Position numbers and translations under genes: made by a program. The notes below the pieces were generated by a model. The model saw only the letters and a list, made by a program, of their open reading frames with translations, ran no database searches and was not told the origin of the DNA. From Acidobacteriota bacterium (GTDB taxonomy: Bacteria; Acidobacteriota; Terriglobia; Bryobacterales; Bryobacteraceae), in assembly GCA_016213775.1 (NCBI GenBank), contig JACQZR010000144.1, positions 1 to 64,000 of the forward strand: 64,000 nucleotides of DNA. Direction: 5' to 3'. Every line of letters begins with the position of its first letter. Position 1 is the first letter of the stretch. Below are positions 33,671-43,316 of the stretch, one piece after another.

Positions 33671-33708
33671 GGTAGTTTATCGGCCCGCGAATTGCTTGGT
33701 TGATTAGC

Positions 33709-35289
33709 GTGAAACCTATCCGCGAAATCGCCGAAACCCTCGGCGTCACTGAGGAGTACCTGCACTACTACGGCAAGTACACCGCGAAGCTGGATCTCGG
33801 GCTGTTGCAGGCAACCGCCTCGCGCCCGCCCGGCAAGTTGATTCTTGTGACCGCCGTCACCCCGACATCGCATGGGGAGGGCAAAACCGTCGTATCTATT
33901 GGCCTTGCGCAAGGCTTGGCCCGCACGGGCCGCAAAGCCGTCGTCACGCTGCGTGAGCCATCGCTCGGTCCGGTGTTCGGCATCAAAGGCGGGGCCACTG
34001 GCGGTGGCGCATCGCAAGTGATTCCGCCGCAGATGATCAATCTGCATTTCAATGGGGATTTTCACGCCGTGAGTTCCGCGCATAACCTGCTGGCTGCGCT
34101 GTTGGACGCGCACATTCATCACGGCAACGCGCTGGGCATCGATGTGGACAACATCTACTGGCCGCGCGCGCTCGACATGAACGACCGTGCGCTGCGGGAT
34201 GTGATCGTCGGGCTAGGTGGGAAGAACAACGGGGTGCCTCGCGAGACGGGGTTTGTGATTACGGCGGCGAGCGAGATCATGGCGATTCTGGCGCTGTCGA
34301 ACGGCCGCGAAGATTTGCGAAAACGGCTGGGGGAGATTGTGGTTGGGTTGAGCCTGGACGGGAAGCCGATTCGCGCGGCGGACCTGAATGCCACGGGCGC
34401 GATGATGGTGCTGCTGAACGAGGCGATCATGCCGAACCTGGTGCAGACGAGCGAGCATGTGCCGGCGTTTGTGCATGCGGGACCGTTTGCGAACATCGCG
34501 CATGGAACGAGCAGCGTGCTGTCGCAGCGGATGGGCCTGCAACTCGCCGACTGGGTAGTGAACGAGACGGGGTTCGCGGCCGATTTGGGCGCGGAGAAGT
34601 ACTTCGACCTCGTGATGCCCGCCTCGGGGCTGAAGCCTTCCGTGGTCGTGCTGATCGCGTCGCTGCGAGCCATTGAGGCGCAGGGCGGGTTTGCCAACAT
34701 CGACCGCCACTTGAGCAACCTGGCGCAGTTTGGCGTGCCGGTAGTGGTGGCGATCAACCGCTTTGCGGCCGATAGCGCGGAGCAGATTGCGGCGGTGAAG
34801 GGACATTGCCGGCAGTTGGGCGTGGAGGCGGTGGAGGCGGACGTGTTTGCGCGCGGCGGCGATGGCGGACGGGAGCTTGCGGATGCGGTTGTGGAGGCGG
34901 CATCGGGCGAGTCGCATGCCAAGGCGCTGTACAATCACGACCTGACGCTGGAGGCGAAAATTGAGCGGGTGGCGCGAGCGATTTATGGAGCGGCGGGCGT
35001 GTACTTTGAGTCGGGGACAAGGAAGAAGCTGCGGCAGTATGAAGGGATGGGATATGCCGGGCTTCCGGTGTGTATCGCGAAGACGCAGTCGTCGTTGAGT
35101 GATAATCCGAAGCTCATGGGTGCGCCGAGCGGGTTCACGATGACTGTGACGGATGTGCATCTGTCGGCGGGCGCGGGATTCATTGTCGTGATTGCAGGGA
35201 ACATGCTGCGGATGCCGGGATTGGGGAAGGCGCCGCAGGCGTTCCAGATGGATGTGACTGGGGAGGGGGAGATTGTCGGGTTGCAGTGA
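33709..35289 (+). CDS. fhs: Formate--tetrahydrofolate ligase
   Basis: Fhs makes 10-formyl-THF from formate, THF and ATP for one-carbon metabolism. I chose the GTG at 33709 because it gives the family N-terminus KPIREIAETLG; a TTG three codons earlier is possible. The 526-residue product has the P-loop TPTSHGEGKT at about residues 51-60, then LREPSLGPVFGIKGGATGGG, NLHFNGDFHAV, DMNDRALRDVIVGLGG and HAGPFANIAHG. The last 135 codons are duplicated in decayed form at 39101-39482. No folD or other folate gene is adjacent. The next intact housekeeping gene in ancestral order seems to be the S9 peptidase at 41325. Confidence 0.95.
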   Translation: MKPIREIAETLGVTEEYLHYYGKYTAKLDLGLLQATASRPPGKLILVTAVTPTSHGEGKTVVSIGLAQGLARTGRKAVVTLREPSLGPVFGIKGGATGGGASQVIPPQMINLHFNGDFHAVSSAHNLLAALLDAHIHHGNALGIDVDNIYWPRALDMNDRALRDVIVGLGGKNNGVPRETGFVITAASEIMAILALSNGREDLRKRLGEIVVGLSLDGKPIRAADLNATGAMMVLLNEAIMPNLVQTSEHVPAFVHAGPFANIAHGTSSVLSQRMGLQLADWVVNETGFAADLGAEKYFDLVMPASGLKPSVVVLIASLRAIEAQGGFANIDRHLSNLAQFGVPVVVAINRFAADSAEQIAAVKGHCRQLGVEAVEADVFARGGDGGRELADAVVEAASGESHAKALYNHDLTLEAKIERVARAIYGAAGVYFESGTRKKLRQYEGMGYAGLPVCIAKTQSSLSDNPKLMGAPSGFTMTVTDVHLSAGAGFIVVIAGNMLRMPGLGKAPQAFQMDVTGEGEIVGLQ

Positions 35290-35521
35290 TGGGCATCGTA
35301 ATTCACGTCGCGCTTCAACTTCCCACAACGGGACTTATCCGGGGCGCGTTCGATTCAAAAAGCAGAAGTACGTGTCGAGCGTCTCGTCCAAACGAACCCG
35401 TTTCAGACGAGACCGTTCGCTGTTGATCGCCGTTGATTCCTATACAATTCCTAACAGCGTCGATAAGCAGACACCCTATGCTATGGGAGAATGAACAAAA
35501 AAAGGCGCGAGACAATACTGA

Positions 35522-38047
35522 ATGACGAGAATTTCGGGTTCCCTTCGTCTTCGTCCCACGCGGATCGGCTTCCTCGTCGATCCAAACGACTTGGAGTCCC
35601 TGCGGAGGATTTTTCAGGTCTGCACGTGCTCCTGGGGTGGCGTGTTCAATCCGATCATTCCCGTGTGCAGCGTCATTCCGGATGCTTGGACCGATCCACT
35701 ATTTCAGGGGCCAAGCCCAGCGGAACTCGCGCAGGGATACCTTGAGTTTTTCGAGCCCGATGTCTACGTCGAGGCGCACTCCGGCCTAGCCGAGCAAATT
35801 GGCCTTGCCCGGACCGACCTTGATTTTGGTCGCCCGCGCATCATCCCGCTCGATTCGTACTTCACGGCCGATGGCCAGTACCCGTTTTCCATGCCGTTCG
35901 GCATGGAAACCTTCGATATTTACAAGGCCATGTATGACCGAGAGTTCAAGTTCTTCTCCCGGCACGAACATCGCGTGGCCCTCTTCGAGGCTGATCCGTC
36001 CGCATCGCCGTTTATCGAAGCGGTGTTCGGGGGGTTTCCGGTGGACGGGCCACTTCAGCCCTTGTCGCGCGCCTACGTAGACGCGTTCGATCCCATCAAG
36101 CTTGTCCCGAACGTGGAGAACTGGGTCAAGGTCATCAAGGAGGGGTTTCGGCTTCCGTTGGACTTCACGATGGAGAGCCTCAAACCAGATCAAAGCGGCT
36201 GGACCGAGCCGACACTTTTTGTCGCCGATCCCACTAGCCCCCTTGACCTCATCGATCTCTGGAATATGCAGCAGTTTCATGGGCAGATCCTTCCGGTCAA
36301 TCTTGCATGGCTCCAAGATGCCAAGGAGTTTCTGAACGAGTTCGTGCAGGAGAACCACCGACCTCTTCCGGGCAATCCTGACGGCATCATGATCCACACC
36401 ACGATCCAATTTGGCCGGTCGATTGTTTCGGGTGGCCACGAAAAGGCGCTGGAACGTGGAAGCGCCATCCTTACCGAAGCCGGTCTCAACAAACTGCCGA
36501 ACGCGCCTTTTTCGATGAAGCTTTGGTACGACCGAATTTGGAGGACCGACCGAGACGACTTTGTCCACCGCCCGCGGCGAACTCAGATTTCGGCAGCGAC
36601 AACCGATTTGGAACTCAATATTGACGACGAAGGTCCCGACCTGAGATGTCGTTTCACGACTTTGTCTCCCGAATTCGACAGCACGTACAGTGCACATGGG
36701 GAAGCGCGCTGGGTCAATGTCCTGAAACTGCGTAGTTATGGCGCAAACGACACACTTGCCTTGACCATGCCGTCGTCGTTCACCGATGAAAGCGCGCGCA
36801 GGCTGCGTCTCGGTGAACCAACCATCATTTCTCGCGAAGGGTTCGTGCTTCCTCAGAGTCACAAACATCACAGCGAATATTTTCGCCTTCTGACGGGACG
36901 GGACGCGGTGATCGACTGGCTGAAACAGCGAGGGATCGACGCCCAACCTTCTGATCCAGGCCGGATCGCCGAGCAGGTTCTTTCGTCACTAAACGGCTTC
37001 TGGGGCACGCATCTTCTTGCGGACCGTGACACGATCAAGCTGCTCGATCAGATGGCCAAAAGCGTCCGAAGGCACGCCGATGGAAAGGTTGAGGAGTTTC
37101 CGGATCGTTCCGTCGAGGTGAAGCGATGGCGGGATCTGGTTAACCGCCGCTCCGGCCCACCGCATGGATATAGACATGGTGTCAGCCTGGACGCGTTCAT
37201 AGAAGCCCATATATTGCGCCTCGGTTTGGTGCTGGCCTGCACGAATTGCCTCAAGAGAAACTGGTTTGGCATCGAGAATCTCAAGGAGGAGCTTACCTGC
37301 GAGCGCTGCTTGAAAACGTATGCGTTCCCGCAAGGCAGTTTGAATTTTCAACAAACCCCGTGGCAATACCGCGTCGTCGGGCCTTACAGTGTTCCAAATT
37401 TCGCGGAGGGCGCCTACAGCACCGTACTCGCTCTCACCGTGTTTGCCCGCCGATTGGCCGGCAATCACCCAAAGCTTACCTACGCGACCGGTCTGGACTT
37501 CAAGATCGGGAAAGATGTTCCCTTCGAGGTGGATTTCACCTTCTGGTACCAGCGCGGCAAAATGTCTGGTCGGGACGAGGAACCCGTCCTCGTGTTTGGA
37601 GAGGCCAAGAGCTTCGCAATACAGTCTTTCAAAGAGGATGACGTCGCGCGCATGCGGAAACTCGCGGATATTTTCCCTGGAGCATTCATGGTTTTTGCGA
37701 CGCTCAAGGATGAATTGAGCGCTACGGAAAAAACCGCGATCGGACAGTTCACGACTTGGGGGCGAGAGCGGTTGCCGGATGGTCGGCCCCGCACGCCGGT
37801 GATCGTTCTGACGGCTACCGAGCTGTTCTGTGGATGGCGTGTCAAAGAAGCGTGGAACGAGCTTGGGGGGCAGAGGGCGAAGTTCGTATCATCACCGGCC
37901 GTGCGTTTAGACAATCTCTGGACGCTCGCCAACCTAACTCAGCAGACCTATCTTGATTTGCCTGATCCGCACGTGCGTCTCCACGCTCCTGAAGCTGCTA
38001 CTGAAATGAAAGAGCCCGTTCAGGATCCTGGTGCCGCAGCCAACTAG
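35522..38047 (+). CDS. Large unknown protein with zinc ribbon and PD-(D/E)XK-like nuclease domain
   Basis: I do not recognise the 841-residue protein as a named family. The N-terminus reads RIGFLVDPNDLESLRRI, then an unusual VCTCSWGGVFNPIIPV block (33-48). A long middle region (50-560) has no motif I know. A CxxC...CxxC zinc ribbon follows (C573, C576, C593, C596). Then comes a region with D671 in FEVDFTFWY, E694 and K696 in LVFGEAKSF, and a helix (KEDDVARMRKLADIFPG), which fits the D-(E)xK core of PD-(D/E)XK nucleases. No signal peptide or membrane segment is seen. It stands alone between decayed duplicates of fhs and the S9 gene, next to an ATPase/DUF4276 pair. That context suggests a defence or mobile cargo gene. 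The RBS is weak; a TACAAT box lies upstream near 35450. Confidence 0.6.
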   Translation: MTRISGSLRLRPTRIGFLVDPNDLESLRRIFQVCTCSWGGVFNPIIPVCSVIPDAWTDPLFQGPSPAELAQGYLEFFEPDVYVEAHSGLAEQIGLARTDLDFGRPRIIPLDSYFTADGQYPFSMPFGMETFDIYKAMYDREFKFFSRHEHRVALFEADPSASPFIEAVFGGFPVDGPLQPLSRAYVDAFDPIKLVPNVENWVKVIKEGFRLPLDFTMESLKPDQSGWTEPTLFVADPTSPLDLIDLWNMQQFHGQILPVNLAWLQDAKEFLNEFVQENHRPLPGNPDGIMIHTTIQFGRSIVSGGHEKALERGSAILTEAGLNKLPNAPFSMKLWYDRIWRTDRDDFVHRPRRTQISAATTDLELNIDDEGPDLRCRFTTLSPEFDSTYSAHGEARWVNVLKLRSYGANDTLALTMPSSFTDESARRLRLGEPTIISREGFVLPQSHKHHSEYFRLLTGRDAVIDWLKQRGIDAQPSDPGRIAEQVLSSLNGFWGTHLLADRDTIKLLDQMAKSVRRHADGKVEEFPDRSVEVKRWRDLVNRRSGPPHGYRHGVSLDAFIEAHILRLGLVLACTNCLKRNWFGIENLKEELTCERCLKTYAFPQGSLNFQQTPWQYRVVGPYSVPNFAEGAYSTVLALTVFARRLAGNHPKLTYATGLDFKIGKDVPFEVDFTFWYQRGKMSGRDEEPVLVFGEAKSFAIQSFKEDDVARMRKLADIFPGAFMVFATLKDELSATEKTAIGQFTTWGRERLPDGRPRTPVIVLTATELFCGWRVKEAWNELGGQRAKFVSSPAVRLDNLWTLANLTQQTYLDLPDPHVRLHAPEAATEMKEPVQDPGAAAN

Positions 38048-38724
38048 AAGTCTTGATGTTTAAAATCTGTTGTAAATGAGTCAAGTTTTGGAGTCCACGC
38101 AAACCTCCACCTTCGCGCCACGCAGGACAGTCTGGGGCGTCAGTGTTCGTCAGGCGGATCCGGCACCGGAGGGAGCCGCGGGGCGGCGGTTGCCTTGAAG
38201 GGCCATCTCCTGATTAGCAGGAGCTGAACGATGATGGTCGCACCGAGCGCGACCGTTATGCCGCATGTGAATTGGCAGGCACGCCGTTTCCGAATCTGCC
38301 GTCATTCTGAGAAGCAGAATAGCAAGATCTCATCGCGGTAGATTTTCTTGGCGAGCTTGGCGGTCTTGGCGAGAGACTGGTTTTGCCTTTGAGATGACCT
38401 CGAAGACCAATTCATGTCAGTCACCCGTTCTTGCCCACAGGCGCATGCTGATCTCACGCAAAGGCGCTAGGCCCGCCAAGAAACCAGGACTTCGCGGAGA
38501 ACCGAATACAACTCGTCGGTCTGAGGCGGAGCCTCGTTAGACGTAACGTCGGCAAAACCGTCGAATTTACCAAGAAACGGCGTTGGGGGAAGCAATGGAT
38601 GAATGATTGGGAACCCGGAAATTATCCATCTCACACGCAATCTCAGATGCTCTGCCGCGCTTCAAGACGGCCAGATTGTCCAGCAAACGAGGTTCGCGCG
38701 TGCAACCGGAACTGCGCGCGGGCG
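38048..38724. other. Gene-free spacer downstream of the 841-residue protein
   Basis: I see no supported gene in these 677 bases. There is a short run of three 9-base units of CTTGGCGAG type near 38347-38373, and no terminator I would defend. The region ends where homology to the S9 peptidase gene begins at its start codon. Confidence 0.5.
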
Positions 38725-39105
38725 ATACGCGCGCTGCTTCTCCTCGCTCTCACTTTTGACTTGTCCGCGGCGGACAAGGTGGCTCCGACGGTGGACCGGT
38801 TGATTGAAACGGGTACCGCGGGTGGGGCGCGGATTTCGCCAAACGGGAATTGGGTGGCGTATAGCGTCACGGCGGCGGATTGGAAGGCGGACGTGTTTGT
38901 TTCGCAGATATGGCTGGCGGATACGGCGTAGGGCAAGACGGTGCAACTGACGCGCGCGACGAAGGCCGGGCGGCGAATACACAGGGGTCGCCGGATTCGC
39001 GGCTGCTCATGTTGACCGCTTCGCGGAGGGCGGCAAGACGCAGATTTACGCGATCCGGCCGGATGGGGGCGAGGCGTTTCCTCTGACGAAATCGGAGACC
39101 GCGGT
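38725..39105 (+). pseudogene. Duplicated 5' fragment of the S9 peptidase gene
   Basis: The stretch aligns by eye with 41325-41707, the first 128 codons of the intact S9 peptidase, at roughly 85 percent identity with several indels. The start codon has become ATA. An in-frame TAG appears at about 38928-38930 where the intact copy reads through, and further small indels follow. Homology begins exactly at the start codon: nothing upstream matches. It ends at a GCGGT pentamer shared with fhs, where the sequence switches to fhs. Confidence 0.88.
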
Positions 39106-39482
39106 TGTGGAGGCGGCATCGGGCGAGCCGCATGCCAAGCCGCTGTACAATCACGATCTGACGCTGGAGGCGAAGATTGAGCGAGTGGCGCGGGCGATTT
39201 ATGGAACGGCGGGGGTGTACTTTGAGTCGGGGACGCGGAAGAAGCTGCGGCAGTATGCCGGTGTGTATCGCGAAGACGCAGTCGTCGCTCAGTGCTAATC
39301 CGAAGCTGATGGGTGCGCCGAGCGGGTTCACGATGACGGTGACGGATGTGCATTTGTCGGCGGGTGCGGGGTTCATTGTGGTGATCGCGGGGAACATGCT
39401 GCGGATGCCGGGATTGGGGAAGGCGCCGCAGGCGTTCCAGATGGATGTGACGGGGGAGGGGGAGATTGTCGGGTTGCAGTGA
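39101..39482 (+). pseudogene. fhs: Duplicated 3' fragment of formate--THF ligase
   Basis: From the shared GCGGT at 39101-39105 to the TGA at 39480-39482, the sequence matches the last 135 codons of fhs (34885-35289) at about 95 percent identity outside one 23-base deletion. That deletion, near 39258, shifts the frame. Homology stops exactly at the stop codon; the following bases differ from those after the intact fhs. Confidence 0.9.
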
Positions 39483-39494
39483 CAGGTTTTTTTC

Positions 39495-40103
39495 TTATAG
39501 CGGCTCACCACCGGATAGGGTCAGAATTGTGTTCAGGAAGGATCGCAGTTCGGGACACACCGCGGCAGCAACGCTGAGATCCCTTCCCTGTAAGATTCTC
39601 TTGGCATCACGAGTCTTGGTGTAGTGCCTGGGTCCCTGGCCGGTTCTGAAAATCTCCTTGATGTGATAGGAGGGCGGGTGGTTGTGGTTAACGGATTCCG
39701 GGCTACCCGCCGGGGCAGTCCGGTTGTGTTTGGCCAATCCCTGAATGGCCGGCCAATACGGAAGCAGCCAGGCTTCAAAATCATGCTTCGCCACATGGGC
39801 GTGGAAACGGTCGTTGGAGCCTACCCAGCTTCGCATTTTCTGCTTCGCATCCTCGGCGCTGAGAAAATCGTTCGAACCTGTGTAGACATCCGTCAGCGCA
39901 ATCACGTGATCGGCATCTGGCGCCGTGCCCCTCAGCAATGCCTCCACGACTCGCTTCAACTTCTCCTGCTTGGGGATTCTACCGTCGTACTTGTTCGGTA
40001 TCAACCTTGGCATCCTACCAGGAAGGCGCGGGGCGAGGAACTCACGCAGGTGGGGGAGAAAAACTCTTTCGGTTTCGCCTTCGATCAGAATCGCGATCTT
40101 CAT
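39495..40103 (-). CDS. DUF4276 family protein (TOPRIM-like), partner of AAA ATPase
   Basis: The 202-residue protein starts with MKIAILIEGETERVFLPHL (E8, E10, E12). It then shows VIALTDVYTG and the family-typical HVAKHDFEAWLLPYW. DUF4276 is predicted to adopt a TOPRIM-like fold and often pairs with an AAA ATPase, as in two-gene versions of OLD-family defence nucleases. The ATG at 40103 overlaps the ATPase stop by four bases (ATGA), a strong sign of stoichiometric coupling. The TOPRIM comparison is from knowledge of similar two-gene systems such as PARIS and is not proven for this protein. Confidence 0.75.
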   Translation of the reverse strand: MKIAILIEGETERVFLPHLREFLAPRLPGRMPRLIPNKYDGRIPKQEKLKRVVEALLRGTAPDADHVIALTDVYTGSNDFLSAEDAKQKMRSWVGSNDRFHAHVAKHDFEAWLLPYWPAIQGLAKHNRTAPAGSPESVNHNHPPSYHIKEIFRTGQGPRHYTKTRDAKRILQGRDLSVAAAVCPELRSFLNTILTLSGGEPL

Positions 40104-41260
40104 CCACGCGCCCCCAAGCGGCCATTGCGCCAAAGTTCATCAAGAGTGTATTCCTCCAACCATTGCTCCAGATTCAGCTTGTCAGCCCATGTCAACGTCG
40201 AAGTTCCGTCATCAGCGGTATCCATCACCACTACTTCGCTGGGTTTGAGAAAACGGACCAGGCGATCGGAATGGGTTGCGACGACGATCTGTGTTCTCTG
40301 GGCAGCTTCCCTCAATAGGCCAGCGAGCAGACTGAGCAATTCCGGATGAAGACTGACCTCGGGCTCGTCGAGCAGGGTTAGAGCAGTCAATCCCGGGCTT
40401 TGCAGCAGCGTAGCGAGCCACACGAACCGCAGCATTCCTTCAGAAAGCTGGTGCATGTACAGCGGCTTGGAGAAACTGTTATCGCGCCAGGTCATGGCAA
40501 GAGTACCGGCGGCAACAGGCGGAAAATCGAGCCGTTTGAAGCCAGGAAATGCCGCTTTCAAAGAGTCTTCGACAACCTCAAAGCGATCGGGCTCCGCCTC
40601 GCGAAGATAATAAAGGCTGGAGACCAGGTCTTCTCCGTTCTTGCCGGGCAGAGCGGCTGGCCGCATGGTCTGGGGCAGTCGCACCGGAGACCCTGGTTCT
40701 ACGTTCAGTACATGGTAGTAAGTGGATGAAGCAAGGCGACGGCGGAACTCTTCGGGTGAACGAAATAGCTTGGGAACCTGAGAAAGCGAAGACTCCAACG
40801 GATTGTGTTCCCAGTTAGGGCGAACGAGTTTGCCTTTTTCTACCTCGTAATACTTGATATCGCCTCCCCGGGAGTCGATATGGTTAAATGGATCTGGATA
40901 TCCCTCTCGCCTTTGGTTCAATGTTTCCCTGTCGATCCGGTAGGCGGTTCCTTGGGGCCTGAGGCTCAGCGAATAGCCGAGGGGCTCGTAGTTTGGGACC
41001 GTCATGGAAATCCCGAACCCGATCTCACCCGCACGGTCGTACGTCATCATTGCGGGCAAGCCGGACATTTCAATGACTGAGGCGTTGAGATTGCCTTGCG
41101 CGGAGCTCGCAAGGACGGAGAGAGCGTCGAGTAAGGACGACTTGCCAACGCCATTTGCTCCGATGAGGACGGCCAGGGGACGCAGTTCCAGATCCACATT
41201 GGCGAGCCGGCGGAATCCCCGCACTGTGAGATGGAGGAAGCGTTGCGTTGAATTTTCCAC
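40100..41260 (-). CDS. AAA (SMC/OLD-like) ATPase of a two-gene defence module
   Basis: The protein opens LHLTVRGFRRLANVDLELRPLAVLIG, leading into Walker A GANGVGKSS. An ABC-type signature-like QLSEGMLRF and Walker B LTLLDEPEVSLHPELL follow, then the THSDRLVRFL switch histidine. This is the AAA_21/RecF-like family found in OLD and related systems. I favour the GTG at 41260 (386 residues); a TTG at 41278 in the same frame lacks a ribosome site. It is coupled to the DUF4276 gene by ATGA. The likely role is phage or plasmid sensing coupled to a nuclease partner, by analogy. It is divergent from the S9 peptidase gene, with a palindrome between them. Confidence 0.8.
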   Translation of the reverse strand: MENSTQRFLHLTVRGFRRLANVDLELRPLAVLIGANGVGKSSLLDALSVLASSAQGNLNASVIEMSGLPAMMTYDRAGEIGFGISMTVPNYEPLGYSLSLRPQGTAYRIDRETLNQRREGYPDPFNHIDSRGGDIKYYEVEKGKLVRPNWEHNPLESSLSQVPKLFRSPEEFRRRLASSTYYHVLNVEPGSPVRLPQTMRPAALPGKNGEDLVSSLYYLREAEPDRFEVVEDSLKAAFPGFKRLDFPPVAAGTLAMTWRDNSFSKPLYMHQLSEGMLRFVWLATLLQSPGLTALTLLDEPEVSLHPELLSLLAGLLREAAQRTQIVVATHSDRLVRFLKPSEVVVMDTADDGTSTLTWADKLNLEQWLEEYTLDELWRNGRLGARG

Positions 41261-41290
41261 GCTCCCATCATCCCCCAAATTAGAGGCATC

Positions 41291-41318
41291 CGCCGTACAG
41301 AACGGCGTCCGCTACAAT
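41291..41318 (+). promoter_or_regulatory. Palindrome and -10 box of the S9 peptidase gene (probably leaderless)
   Basis: CGCCGT-ACAGA-ACGGCG (41291-41307) is a perfect inverted repeat. It is followed by TACAAT at 41313-41318, six bases before the ATG at 41325. Transcription from this box would begin at or near the start codon, giving a leaderless mRNA. The palindrome sits in the -35 region and could also affect the divergent ATPase gene. Confidence 0.45.
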
Positions 41319-41324
41319 TCGAAG

Positions 41325-43316
41325 ATGCGCGCGCTGCTTCTCCTCGCTCTTGCCTTTGCTTTGTCCGCGGCGGACAAGGTGGCTCCCACTGTGGACCGGT
41401 TGATTGAAACGCGCGCTGCCGGTGGGGCGCGGATTTCGCCAGACGGGAAGTGGGTGGCGTACAGCGTTACGGCCCCGGATTGGAAGGCGGACGCGTTTGT
41501 TTCGCAGATCTGGCTGGTGGAGGTGACCGGCGGGAAGGCTGTGCAATTGACGCGCGCAACGGGGACGGGGGCGTCCAATGCGCAGTGGTCGCCGGATTCG
41601 CGGCTGCTCACGTTCACCACTTCGCGCGATGGCGGAAAGGCGCAGGTTTACGCAATCCGGCCGGATGGCGGCGAGGCGTTTCCACTGACAAAATCGGAGA
41701 CAGCGGTGGGCGGTTATGAATGGGCACCGGATGGGAAGTGGATCGCGTATGTAGCGAGCGAGCCGGAGGCCAAGCCGCGCAAGGAGCGGAAGGAATCGTT
41801 CGGCGAGTTCGAGGTGGTGCGCCGTGATTATTCCTTCCAGCAGCTTTCCGTGATTGATGCGGTGAAGGCGATGGACGCGCCACAGGAAGGCAAGGCCCTG
41901 ACGAAGGGAACGGCGTATACCGTGACCGGGTTTCAGTGGGCGCCGGACAGCACGCGGATTGCGTTCAGCGCGACGCGCAATCCAGATCTGACGCAGAGTC
42001 ATACGAGCGACATCTGGGTTCTCACCGTGGCGGATGGGACGGCGAAGAAAATCGTGGACCAGCCTTACTCAGACAATGATCCGAAGTGGTCGCCGGATGG
42101 GGCGCAGATCGTGTTTTCGAGCGCGATGGGGAAGGCGGTATCGCATGCCAACCGGCGGCTGGCGGTGGTGAGCGCGAACGGCGGCGCCGTCCGGTCGATC
42201 ACGGACGGGTTTGATGAAAACCCTTCGCTGGTGGAGTGGCGAAAGGACGGCGTCTATTTTTCGGGACTGCAAAAGACGGCGTCGCACCTGTTCCGGGTGG
42301 ATGCGGCGAGCGGGAAGATCACGCGGGTGACACCGGCGCAGTCGCTGCTGCCGGGCGGGTTCAGTTTCACGGCGGATGGGGAAACGATGGCGTTTTCAGC
42401 GGCGTCACCCACAACGCTTTCGGAGATTTATGTTTCGCCGGTGGCGAGGTTTGCTGCGAGAAAACTGACGGATTTCACCGCGGCGGTGAGTGACCTTGTG
42501 CTGGGCACGCGTGAGGTGATCTCGTGGAAGAGCAAGGATGGCGCGCTGATCGAGGGCATTCTGATCAAGCCCGCGGAGTTTGATGCGTCGAAGAAATACC
42601 CGCTGCTGTGCATCATTCATGGAGGGCCGACGGGGATTGACCGGCCGGCGCTGCTGGACGCGCGCTATTATCCGAGCGACATCTGGGCCGCGCGCGGGGC
42701 GGTGATCCTGAAAGTGAACTACCGCGGAAGCGCGGGGTACGGCGAGAAATTCCGGCAGTTGAATGTGCGCAACCTCGGTGTCGGCGATGCGTGGGATGTG
42801 ATCAGCGGAGTGGATCATCTGATTGCGCAGGGGTTTGTGGACGCGAAGCGCGTGGGATGCATGGGATGGAGCCAGGGTGGTTACATTTCGGCGTTTCTGA
42901 CGACATCGAGCGACCGGTTCGCGGCGATCTCGGTCGGAGCGGGCATTTCGAATTGGGCTACCTATTACTACAACACGGACATCACGCAGTTCACGATCAA
43001 CTACCTGGGCGCGGACCCGGCGAAGGATCCGGAGATCTACAGGAAGACCTCTCCGATGACGCATGTGCTGCAGGCGAAGACGCCGACGCTGATTCAGCAT
43101 GGGGAGTTGGACCGGCGCGTGCCGATCGCCAATGCGTATGAGTTGCGGCAGGGGTTGGAGAACCGCGGCGTGCCGGTGGAGATGATCGTGTACAAGGGGT
43201 ATGGACACGGGATCACCAAGCCGAAATCGATGCGGGCTGTGATGAATCATAACCTGGCGTGGTTCAATCACCACTTGTGGAATGATCCGCCGCCCGACTT
43301 TACTATCGCGAAGTAA
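41325..43316 (+). CDS. S9 family prolyl oligopeptidase-type peptidase, exported
   Basis: The 663-residue peptidase has a signal peptide (about residues 1-16). A beta-propeller of PD40-type repeats follows (SPDGKWVAY, WSPDSRLL, WAPDGKW and more, about 35-370). The C-terminal alpha/beta-hydrolase domain has catalytic S516 (GWSQGG), D596 (HGELDRRVP) and H628 (GYGHG). It resembles dipeptidyl-peptidase/acylaminoacyl peptidases that trim peptides in the periplasm. I chose the ATG at 41325 for the signal peptide and the TACAAT box; the open frame extends upstream into the antisense of the ATPase. It is followed after three bases by a PLP decarboxylase. A decayed copy of its first 128 codons lies at 38725-39105. 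Confidence 0.93.
   Translation: MRALLLLALAFALSAADKVAPTVDRLIETRAAGGARISPDGKWVAYSVTAPDWKADAFVSQIWLVEVTGGKAVQLTRATGTGASNAQWSPDSRLLTFTTSRDGGKAQVYAIRPDGGEAFPLTKSETAVGGYEWAPDGKWIAYVASEPEAKPRKERKESFGEFEVVRRDYSFQQLSVIDAVKAMDAPQEGKALTKGTAYTVTGFQWAPDSTRIAFSATRNPDLTQSHTSDIWVLTVADGTAKKIVDQPYSDNDPKWSPDGAQIVFSSAMGKAVSHANRRLAVVSANGGAVRSITDGFDENPSLVEWRKDGVYFSGLQKTASHLFRVDAASGKITRVTPAQSLLPGGFSFTADGETMAFSAASPTTLSEIYVSPVARFAARKLTDFTAAVSDLVLGTREVISWKSKDGALIEGILIKPAEFDASKKYPLLCIIHGGPTGIDRPALLDARYYPSDIWAARGAVILKVNYRGSAGYGEKFRQLNVRNLGVGDAWDVISGVDHLIAQGFVDAKRVGCMGWSQGGYISAFLTTSSDRFAAISVGAGISNWATYYYNTDITQFTINYLGADPAKDPEIYRKTSPMTHVLQAKTPTLIQHGELDRRVPIANAYELRQGLENRGVPVEMIVYKGYGHGITKPKSMRAVMNHNLAWFNHHLWNDPPPDFTIAK

What the first reader, a model, noticed from the sequence alone, without database searches (positions are those of the whole stretch)
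34885..41707. Stacked tandem duplication at an fhs / S9-peptidase site carrying two different cargoes
Order seen: intact fhs, 841-aa gene, S9 5' fragment joined to fhs 3' fragment, ATPase/DUF4276 pair, intact S9 gene. The hybrid joint has a 5-base microhomology (GCGGT) present in both parents at 34885-34889 and 41703-41707. Homology ends exactly at the fhs stop and the S9 start, so the DNA between these genes differs wholly between the two copies. A simple reading is that the fhs-S9 gap is an exchange site. A circle or segment from a related strain with the alternative cargo would have integrated by recombination in the flanking genes.
Basis: partly seen in the sequence, partly recalled or inferred. 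Interest (0 to 1): 0.75.

Follow-up and report, generated by a model that had tools for sequence, protein, structure and literature searches.

The report
Two-lineage scar stacking defence cargoes
A bacterium appears to carry, end to end, two versions of the same gene neighbourhood that had diverged in separate lineages, fused at a five-letter match so that two different probable anti-phage cargoes sit side by side instead of one replacing the other.

Summary
Order: fhs, 841-aa gene, S9 5' fragment fused at GCGGT to an fhs 3' fragment, ATPase/DUF4276 pair, intact S9. Both fragments are decayed. Main new result: the fhs fragment differs from intact fhs at 22 sites, mostly silent (17 synonymous, 5 replacement), so the copies diverged as working genes before fusion. 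A self-made duplication that then decayed is rejected for fhs (P = 4e-4, or 0.013 with lenient site counts) but not from S9 alone. Best reading: DNA from a related lineage carrying fhs-cargo-S9 was joined to the resident allele, one end by microhomology and the other by homologous recombination. Circle or linear route, and which cargo was resident, cannot be told.

The 'exchange site' predicted in relatives was not found: 0 of 15 family genomes with both genes have them on one contig, but no close relative is held. Cargo B is a PADLOC HEC-01 pair. Cargo A is an unannotated family with 88 relatives found, whose C-terminal part resembles PD-(D/E)xK nucleases such as Cdn1, Card1 and Can2. The mechanism is known; the stacking is a neat instance.

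The parts
33700..35289 (+). fhs, formate--tetrahydrofolate ligase, intact (529 aa); left anchor
   Evidence: PF01268 E 2e-222
35522..38047 (+). Cargo A: 841-aa protein of an unannotated family; invariant C573/C576/C593/C596 and a PD-(D/E)xK-type set E669, D671, E694, K696
   Evidence: No hit in PADLOC, Pfam or NCBIfam; 88 relatives, 80 loci kept; 52-sequence alignment; model pLDDT 86.8; PDB matches to Cdn1, Card1 and Can2 over about residues 437-801
38450..38541 (+). Gene-less remnant of the end of a repeated element (hairpin GAGGC-GGA-GCCTC); left limit approximate, judged by eye
   Evidence: Core 38514-38536 occurs 12 times in the own genome with up to 3 mismatches, reversed control 0; copies compared
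38725..39105 (+). S9 peptidase 5' fragment, decayed (ATA start, TAG, two 1-nt deletions)
   Evidence: tblastn pieces
39101..39105 (.). Joint GCGGT, shared by both parents (34885-34889; 41703-41707)
   Evidence: chance 0.0086
39101..39482 (+). fhs 3' fragment with a 23-nt deletion
39495..40133 (-). Cargo B, gene 2: DUF4276 protein (212 aa), HEC-01B-like
   Evidence: PF14103 E 2.1e-27; PADLOC HEC-01B E 5e-14
40100..41278 (-). Cargo B, gene 1: AAA_21 ATPase (392 aa), HEC-01A-like
   Evidence: PF13304 E 2.9e-36; PADLOC HEC-01A E 3e-65
41325..43316 (+). S9 prolyl-oligopeptidase-type peptidase, intact; right anchor (the longest ORF opens at 41004, but homology to the fragment starts at 41325)
   Evidence: PF00326 E 1.5e-51

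Best explanation
Two diverged alleles of one locus, fhs-cargo-S9, each with its own cargo, were fused head to tail in one chromosome. A DNA piece from a related lineage, spanning part of fhs, its cargo and part of S9, was joined to resident DNA by illegitimate recombination at GCGGT on one side and by homologous recombination in fhs or S9 (or further out) on the other. Two routes give the same map: (i) the donor piece was end-joined into a circle at GCGGT and integrated by one crossover in a flanking gene; (ii) a linear piece entered with homology at one end and microhomology at the other. The result keeps both cargoes and one working copy of each flanking gene, and leaves the S9'-'fhs hybrid as a pseudogene scar. 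Shown: the anatomy, the joint, the decay, and the pre-fusion divergence of fhs. Inferred: the import, the route, and the use of both cargoes in phage defence. Unknown: which allele was resident.
For: Codon pattern of the fhs pair: 17 synonymous, 5 replacement, 15 of 22 at third positions. Self-duplication with one-sided decay predicts at least 60% replacements (48% with lenient site counts); observed 23%, P = 4e-4 (0.013 lenient). The S9 pair differs more (56 sites, pS 0.254, pN 0.111); one shared decay time for both pairs fits poorly (P = 0.034 at the most generous setting, 3e-4 with assumed constraints of 0.2 and 0.05). fhs limits post-fusion decay to 0.041 per site (95% upper), i.e. at most about 11 of 30.5 S9 replacements. 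The first fhs difference lies 27 nt from the joint, leaving little room for a tract copied from the resident fhs. Both units keep the order fhs-cargo-S9, and their gap DNA is unrelated. The 5-nt joint fits the 3-10 bp microhomology that PMC3240628 states for HFIR (passage). In that paper 56 of 60 candidate clones gave the PCR product of a partial duplication (14 sequenced), read by its authors as shortened circles entering by one crossover. Cargo B occurs in another genus (G190) at 80% DNA identity over 1616 bp, which suggests transfer.
Against: No relative with a single fhs-cargo-S9 allele was found. The S9 pair alone does not reject self-duplication (P = 0.31; 0.91 lenient). 'Related lineage' is inferred from divergence, not from a named donor. 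Twenty-two fhs differences are a small sample. The literature calls HFIR rare: 100 to 10^6 times less frequent than homologous recombination (PMC3240628, passage), and that paper's Discussion holds HFIR unlikely to explain the dimorphic loci of E. coli.
Confidence: 0.7

Rival explanations
1. Complete tandem units first: fhs-841-S9-fhs-HEC01-S9 existed intact, by import or old duplication, the copies diverged as working genes, and a later deletion between GCGGT repeats in the first S9 and the second fhs made the hybrid.
For: Explains purifying-selection differences and the short-repeat joint equally well.
Against: Needs at least two events and a period with two working fhs and two S9 copies; the assembly has one fhs match at E<=1e-60. 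No relative searched shows the doubled state, though close relatives are lacking.
Confidence: 0.15
2. Self-made tandem duplication of one fhs-cargo-S9 unit, followed by replacement of one cargo and decay of the fragments.
For: Copy order is that of a tandem duplication; the S9 pair alone fits it (P = 0.31).
Against: The fhs pair rejects it (P = 4e-4 or 0.013). A cargo swap would need crossovers inside the short fragments, yet differences run across both, the first in fhs 27 nt from the joint.
Confidence: 0.08
3. Assembly artefact: two strain haplotypes in a draft assembly wrongly joined.
For: Draft genome of 314 contigs with a contamination estimate of 4.6%.
Against: The joint shares only 5 bases, too short for assembler overlap (general knowledge); both fragments carry frameshifts, and S9 a stop, as old pseudogenes do. 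Reads could not be inspected.
Confidence: 0.05

Closest known systems
Homology-facilitated illegitimate recombination (HFIR), and end-joined circle plus single crossover (both in PMC3240628; HFIR-like model for T6SS immunity arrays in PMC5361080)
   Same: One microhomology joint plus one homologous end; old and new cargo end up stacked; partial copies of flanking genes remain.
   Different: Here the donor is homologous on both sides of its cargo; the event is inferred from one genome and is old enough to have decayed.
Merodiploids made by transformation in Streptococcus pneumoniae (PMC3784515)
   Same: Import of homologous DNA yields a tandem duplication.
   Different: Those use repeats in donor and host and give about 100-900 kb duplications; here units of 4.2 and 2.6 kb and a 5-bp joint.
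Gene-exchange hotspots evolving by homologous recombination in flanking core genes (PMC5635113)
   Same: Different cargoes between the same two genes, no integrase gene found among the ORFs examined here.
   Different: Classical double recombination replaces one cargo by another; here both are kept. Recurrence in relatives not shown.
HEC-01 (Hma-embedded candidate), PADLOC
   Same: Cargo B matches both HEC-01A and HEC-01B.
   Different: No difference looked for beyond the profile matches; function not tested here.
CRISPR ancillary nucleases Cdn1, Card1 and Can2
   Same: Cargo A residues about 437-801 align at Z 11.3, 10.5 and 9.9, with PD-(D/E)xK-type residues conserved.
   Different: No match to their sensor half was seen; residues 1-430 of cargo A showed only weak matches (rows over about 226-338 at Z 6.5 or less) and were not searched alone.

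Membership tests
HFIR / circle-integration scar | Microhomology at the illegitimate joint | tested here: met
   GCGGT; chance 0.0086
HFIR / circle-integration scar | The two copies come from different lineages | tested here: met
   fhs codon pattern shows divergence as working genes; S9 alone inconclusive; paralogues within one genome are not excluded (first rival)
HFIR / circle-integration scar | Deletion of resident DNA (HFIR) versus none (circle) | not testable with these tools
   Needs an unmodified close relative; none held
Exchange hotspot at fhs-S9 | Same flanks with different or no cargo in relatives | tested here: inconclusive
   0 of 15 relatives with both genes have them on one contig; no close relatives held
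HEC-01 | HEC-01A plus adjacent HEC-01B | tested here: met
   E 3e-65 and 5e-14, overlapping genes
HEC-01 | Phage defence activity | not testable with these tools
   Needs an assay
PD-(D/E)xK nucleases (cargo A) | Conserved acidic/lysine set in a matching fold | tested here: met
   E669, D671, E694 invariant and K696 in >=90% of 52 sequences; nuclease and restriction-enzyme matches. Activity not tested
CARF nucleases such as Card1/Can2/Cdn1 (cargo A) | CARF sensor domain | tested here: inconclusive
   Best rows cover mainly residues 437-801; the N-terminal part was not folded or searched alone

The most novel reading that the evidence does not exclude
Illegitimate joining of homologous donor DNA at a locus without its own integrase is a regular way to stack, rather than swap, defence cargoes: the flanking genes supply homology, one microhomology end keeps the resident cargo, and cargo A is a new nuclease defence family with a Card1/Can2/Cdn1-like nuclease part.
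Probability: 0.25. Interest if true: 0.6.

Novelty: new member of a known kind. Interest (0 to 1): 0.4.

Why it matters
Hotspots without integrases have been explained by double recombination in flanking core genes (PMC5635113), which swaps cargoes. This scar shows a fossil step by which a locus could gain a second cargo and keep the first, with a codon signature that puts divergence before fusion. It also points to an unnamed, widely scattered nuclease-like family worth a phage assay.

Tried and rejected
Single-sequence folding of the 841-aa protein failed (pLDDT 34.6); the 52-sequence alignment worked. The 841-aa protein found nothing in IMG/VR or phage records and, as a single sequence, nothing in genome contigs; it gave two plasmid records. 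PDB sequence searches gave nothing at E<=1 and nothing below E 0.15. A Citrobacter homologue had no DNA match in 20,395 E. coli records (DNA search only). None of the 80 cargo A loci from genome contigs holds an fhs or S9 relative at E<=1e-8, so cargo A is not tied to these flanks; many of these loci are short. In the closest, L157 (64% identity), only 0.3 kb upstream is visible.

Neighbourhood test for cargo A: of the 80 loci I picked 34 by hand; one (L199) was dropped because I gave the script no coordinates for it. Up to two ORFs a side, none over 1500 aa, gave 130 ORFs from 33 loci. They matched 184 PADLOC families at E<=1e-15; 116 control ORFs matched 9. The controls were a random 130 of 170 ORFs around fhs and S9 homologues, from which I removed 14 by hand (mainly fhs and S9 ORFs, and others to fit the residue limit). 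No listed family matches more than 3 of the 130, and most listed ones are type I specificity models, presumably on the same ORFs; the sampling rules differ between test and control. So this is only a hint. Pfam shows 5 phage-integrase and 4 resolvase neighbours among the 130 (first 25 of 99 families listed).

Paper searches: for HEC-01/DUF4276, 15 of 2,900 and 15 of 17 papers were listed, none of them counted a DUF4276 mention, and I saw no functional study in these listings; PMC10855318 lists HEC under 'Unknown' in a table of antiphage systems (one passage). For GxxExxY, 2 papers with one mention each, not opened. Mosaic breakpoints in the intact S9 could not be sought without close relatives.

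Full report
Observation. The assembly has one fhs match at E<=1e-60, at 33700-35286. The hybrid at 38725-39482 is a pseudogene: its S9 part has lost the ATG and carries a TAG and two 1-nt deletions; its fhs part has a 23-nt deletion. A 5-nt or longer shared stretch would arise in 0.86% of random joints. DNA outside the genes is unrelated between the two units. The host is probably of the Bryobacterales (Acidobacteriota): contig G123:C57 of the same family has the length and match position of a named record titled Bryobacterales (inference).

Origin of the copies. I classified every difference by codon. fhs: 22 differences, 6/1/15 at codon positions 1/2/3, 17 synonymous and 5 replacement (pS 0.180, pN 0.017). 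S9: 56 differences, 19/7/30, 25.5 synonymous and 30.5 replacement (pS 0.254, pN 0.111). If one copy had been a fragment from the start, at least 60% of fhs differences should be replacements; 23% are (P = 4.0e-4). With silent sites raised by 40% the expectation falls to 48% and P to 0.013. For S9 the same test is not significant (P = 0.31, or 0.91). The S9 N-terminal region is less constrained between species (46-56% identity in 10 relatives) than the fhs C-terminal region (74% in the 3 nearest, 53-68% in 4 others), which partly explains the difference; the species compared differ between the genes. fhs caps post-fusion decay at 0.041 per site, so most S9 replacements also predate fusion, or the S9 fragment was already decaying. 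I conclude that the fhs copies, and probably the S9 copies, are diverged alleles.

Mechanism. Two alleles of fhs-cargo-S9 joined at one microhomology and one homologous crossover give the map seen. PMC3240628 (passages and the Discussion section read) describes both routes: HFIR with 3-10 bp joints in most cases, and shortened circles entering by a single crossover, the reading its authors give to the duplication product seen in 56 of 60 clones (14 sequenced). It also reports HFIR as rare. PMC5361080 (passages) proposes an HFIR-like process for stacked immunity genes in Vibrio cholerae, and likewise calls it rarer than homologous recombination. PMC3784515 (passages) shows duplications made by transformation. 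PMC5635113 (passages) describes hotspots without mobile elements that recombine in flanking core genes. The window cannot choose between circle and linear routes or name the resident allele.

Relatives. In 237 family genomes, S9 (E<=1e-180) occurs in 61 and fhs (E<=1e-60) in 57, own genome included. Comparing the two lists I count 15 relatives with both, on different contigs in all 15; in G116 and G172 the fhs 3' end is missing, and I did not check every contig end. Within the genus, fhs occurs in 5 of 11 relatives and S9 at this cut-off in 0 of 11. Eighteen regions of 3.4 to 20 kb (7 fhs, 11 S9) show no other window gene; the only further matches are a 31% S9-like stretch in L076 and an antisense ORF over the hybrid that mirrors S9. 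So the fhs-S9 adjacency seems lineage-specific, and the exchange-site idea stays untested rather than confirmed.

Cargoes. B is an ATPase/DUF4276 pair matching PADLOC HEC-01A/B. Matches to its DUF4276 protein (E<=1e-10) occur in 23 of 237 family genomes, own included. G190, of another genus, has the cassette at 80% DNA identity over 1616 bp beside another AAA_21 gene, which suggests that it moves. A has no Pfam, NCBIfam or PADLOC match. It has matches (E<=1e-5) in 9 of 237 family genomes, own included, several of them partial, and 88 relatives in genome contigs of many phyla by record title (80 kept). Its alignment has an invariant C4 site and a PD-(D/E)xK-type set. The model (pLDDT 86.8, pTM 0.88) aligns best with Cdn1 (Z 11.3, 223 residues, rmsd 4.3), Card1 (Z 10.5) and Can2 (Z 9.9) over residues about 437-801, then with FokI (Z 8.6). 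Foldseek's only match at E<=1e-3 is Card1. The Z values are moderate, and a shared fold does not prove function. A defence role is likely but inferred.

Verdict. A real and interpretable scar, best read as import from a related lineage, of a known mechanistic kind, with two probable defence cargoes stacked.

Noticed in passing
window 38450-38541; own genome C23 (two copies), C35, C66, C106, C114, C174, C217, C244, C294, C306: A repeated element end (hairpin GAGGC-GGA-GCCTC, usually followed by CGTTAG or CGCTAG) occurs 12 times in the genome (reversed control 0), 6 of them 62-204 nt from a contig start; one copy in C23 lies just downstream of a GxxExxY gene (TIGR04256). Near matches in 3 of 11 other genus genomes. 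It looks like a mobile GxxExxY element; a gene-less remnant lies beside cargo A.
   Followed up: partly
L139 (G256 contig 550) 1272-3347: About 200 residues of the 841-aa family are fused in frame to the end of a permease-like ORF (permease identity judged by eye): possibly another scar of illegitimate joining of this cargo.
   Followed up: no
L137 (Photobacterium damselae plasmid pWMD-P3-2): A full-length cargo A homologue (31% identity) whose nearest annotated neighbour is a DUF4238 gene lies on a plasmid.
   Followed up: no
L147 (G190 contig 747) 1-3332: HEC-01-like pair with a shortened DUF4276 gene directly after another AAA_21 gene.
   Followed up: no
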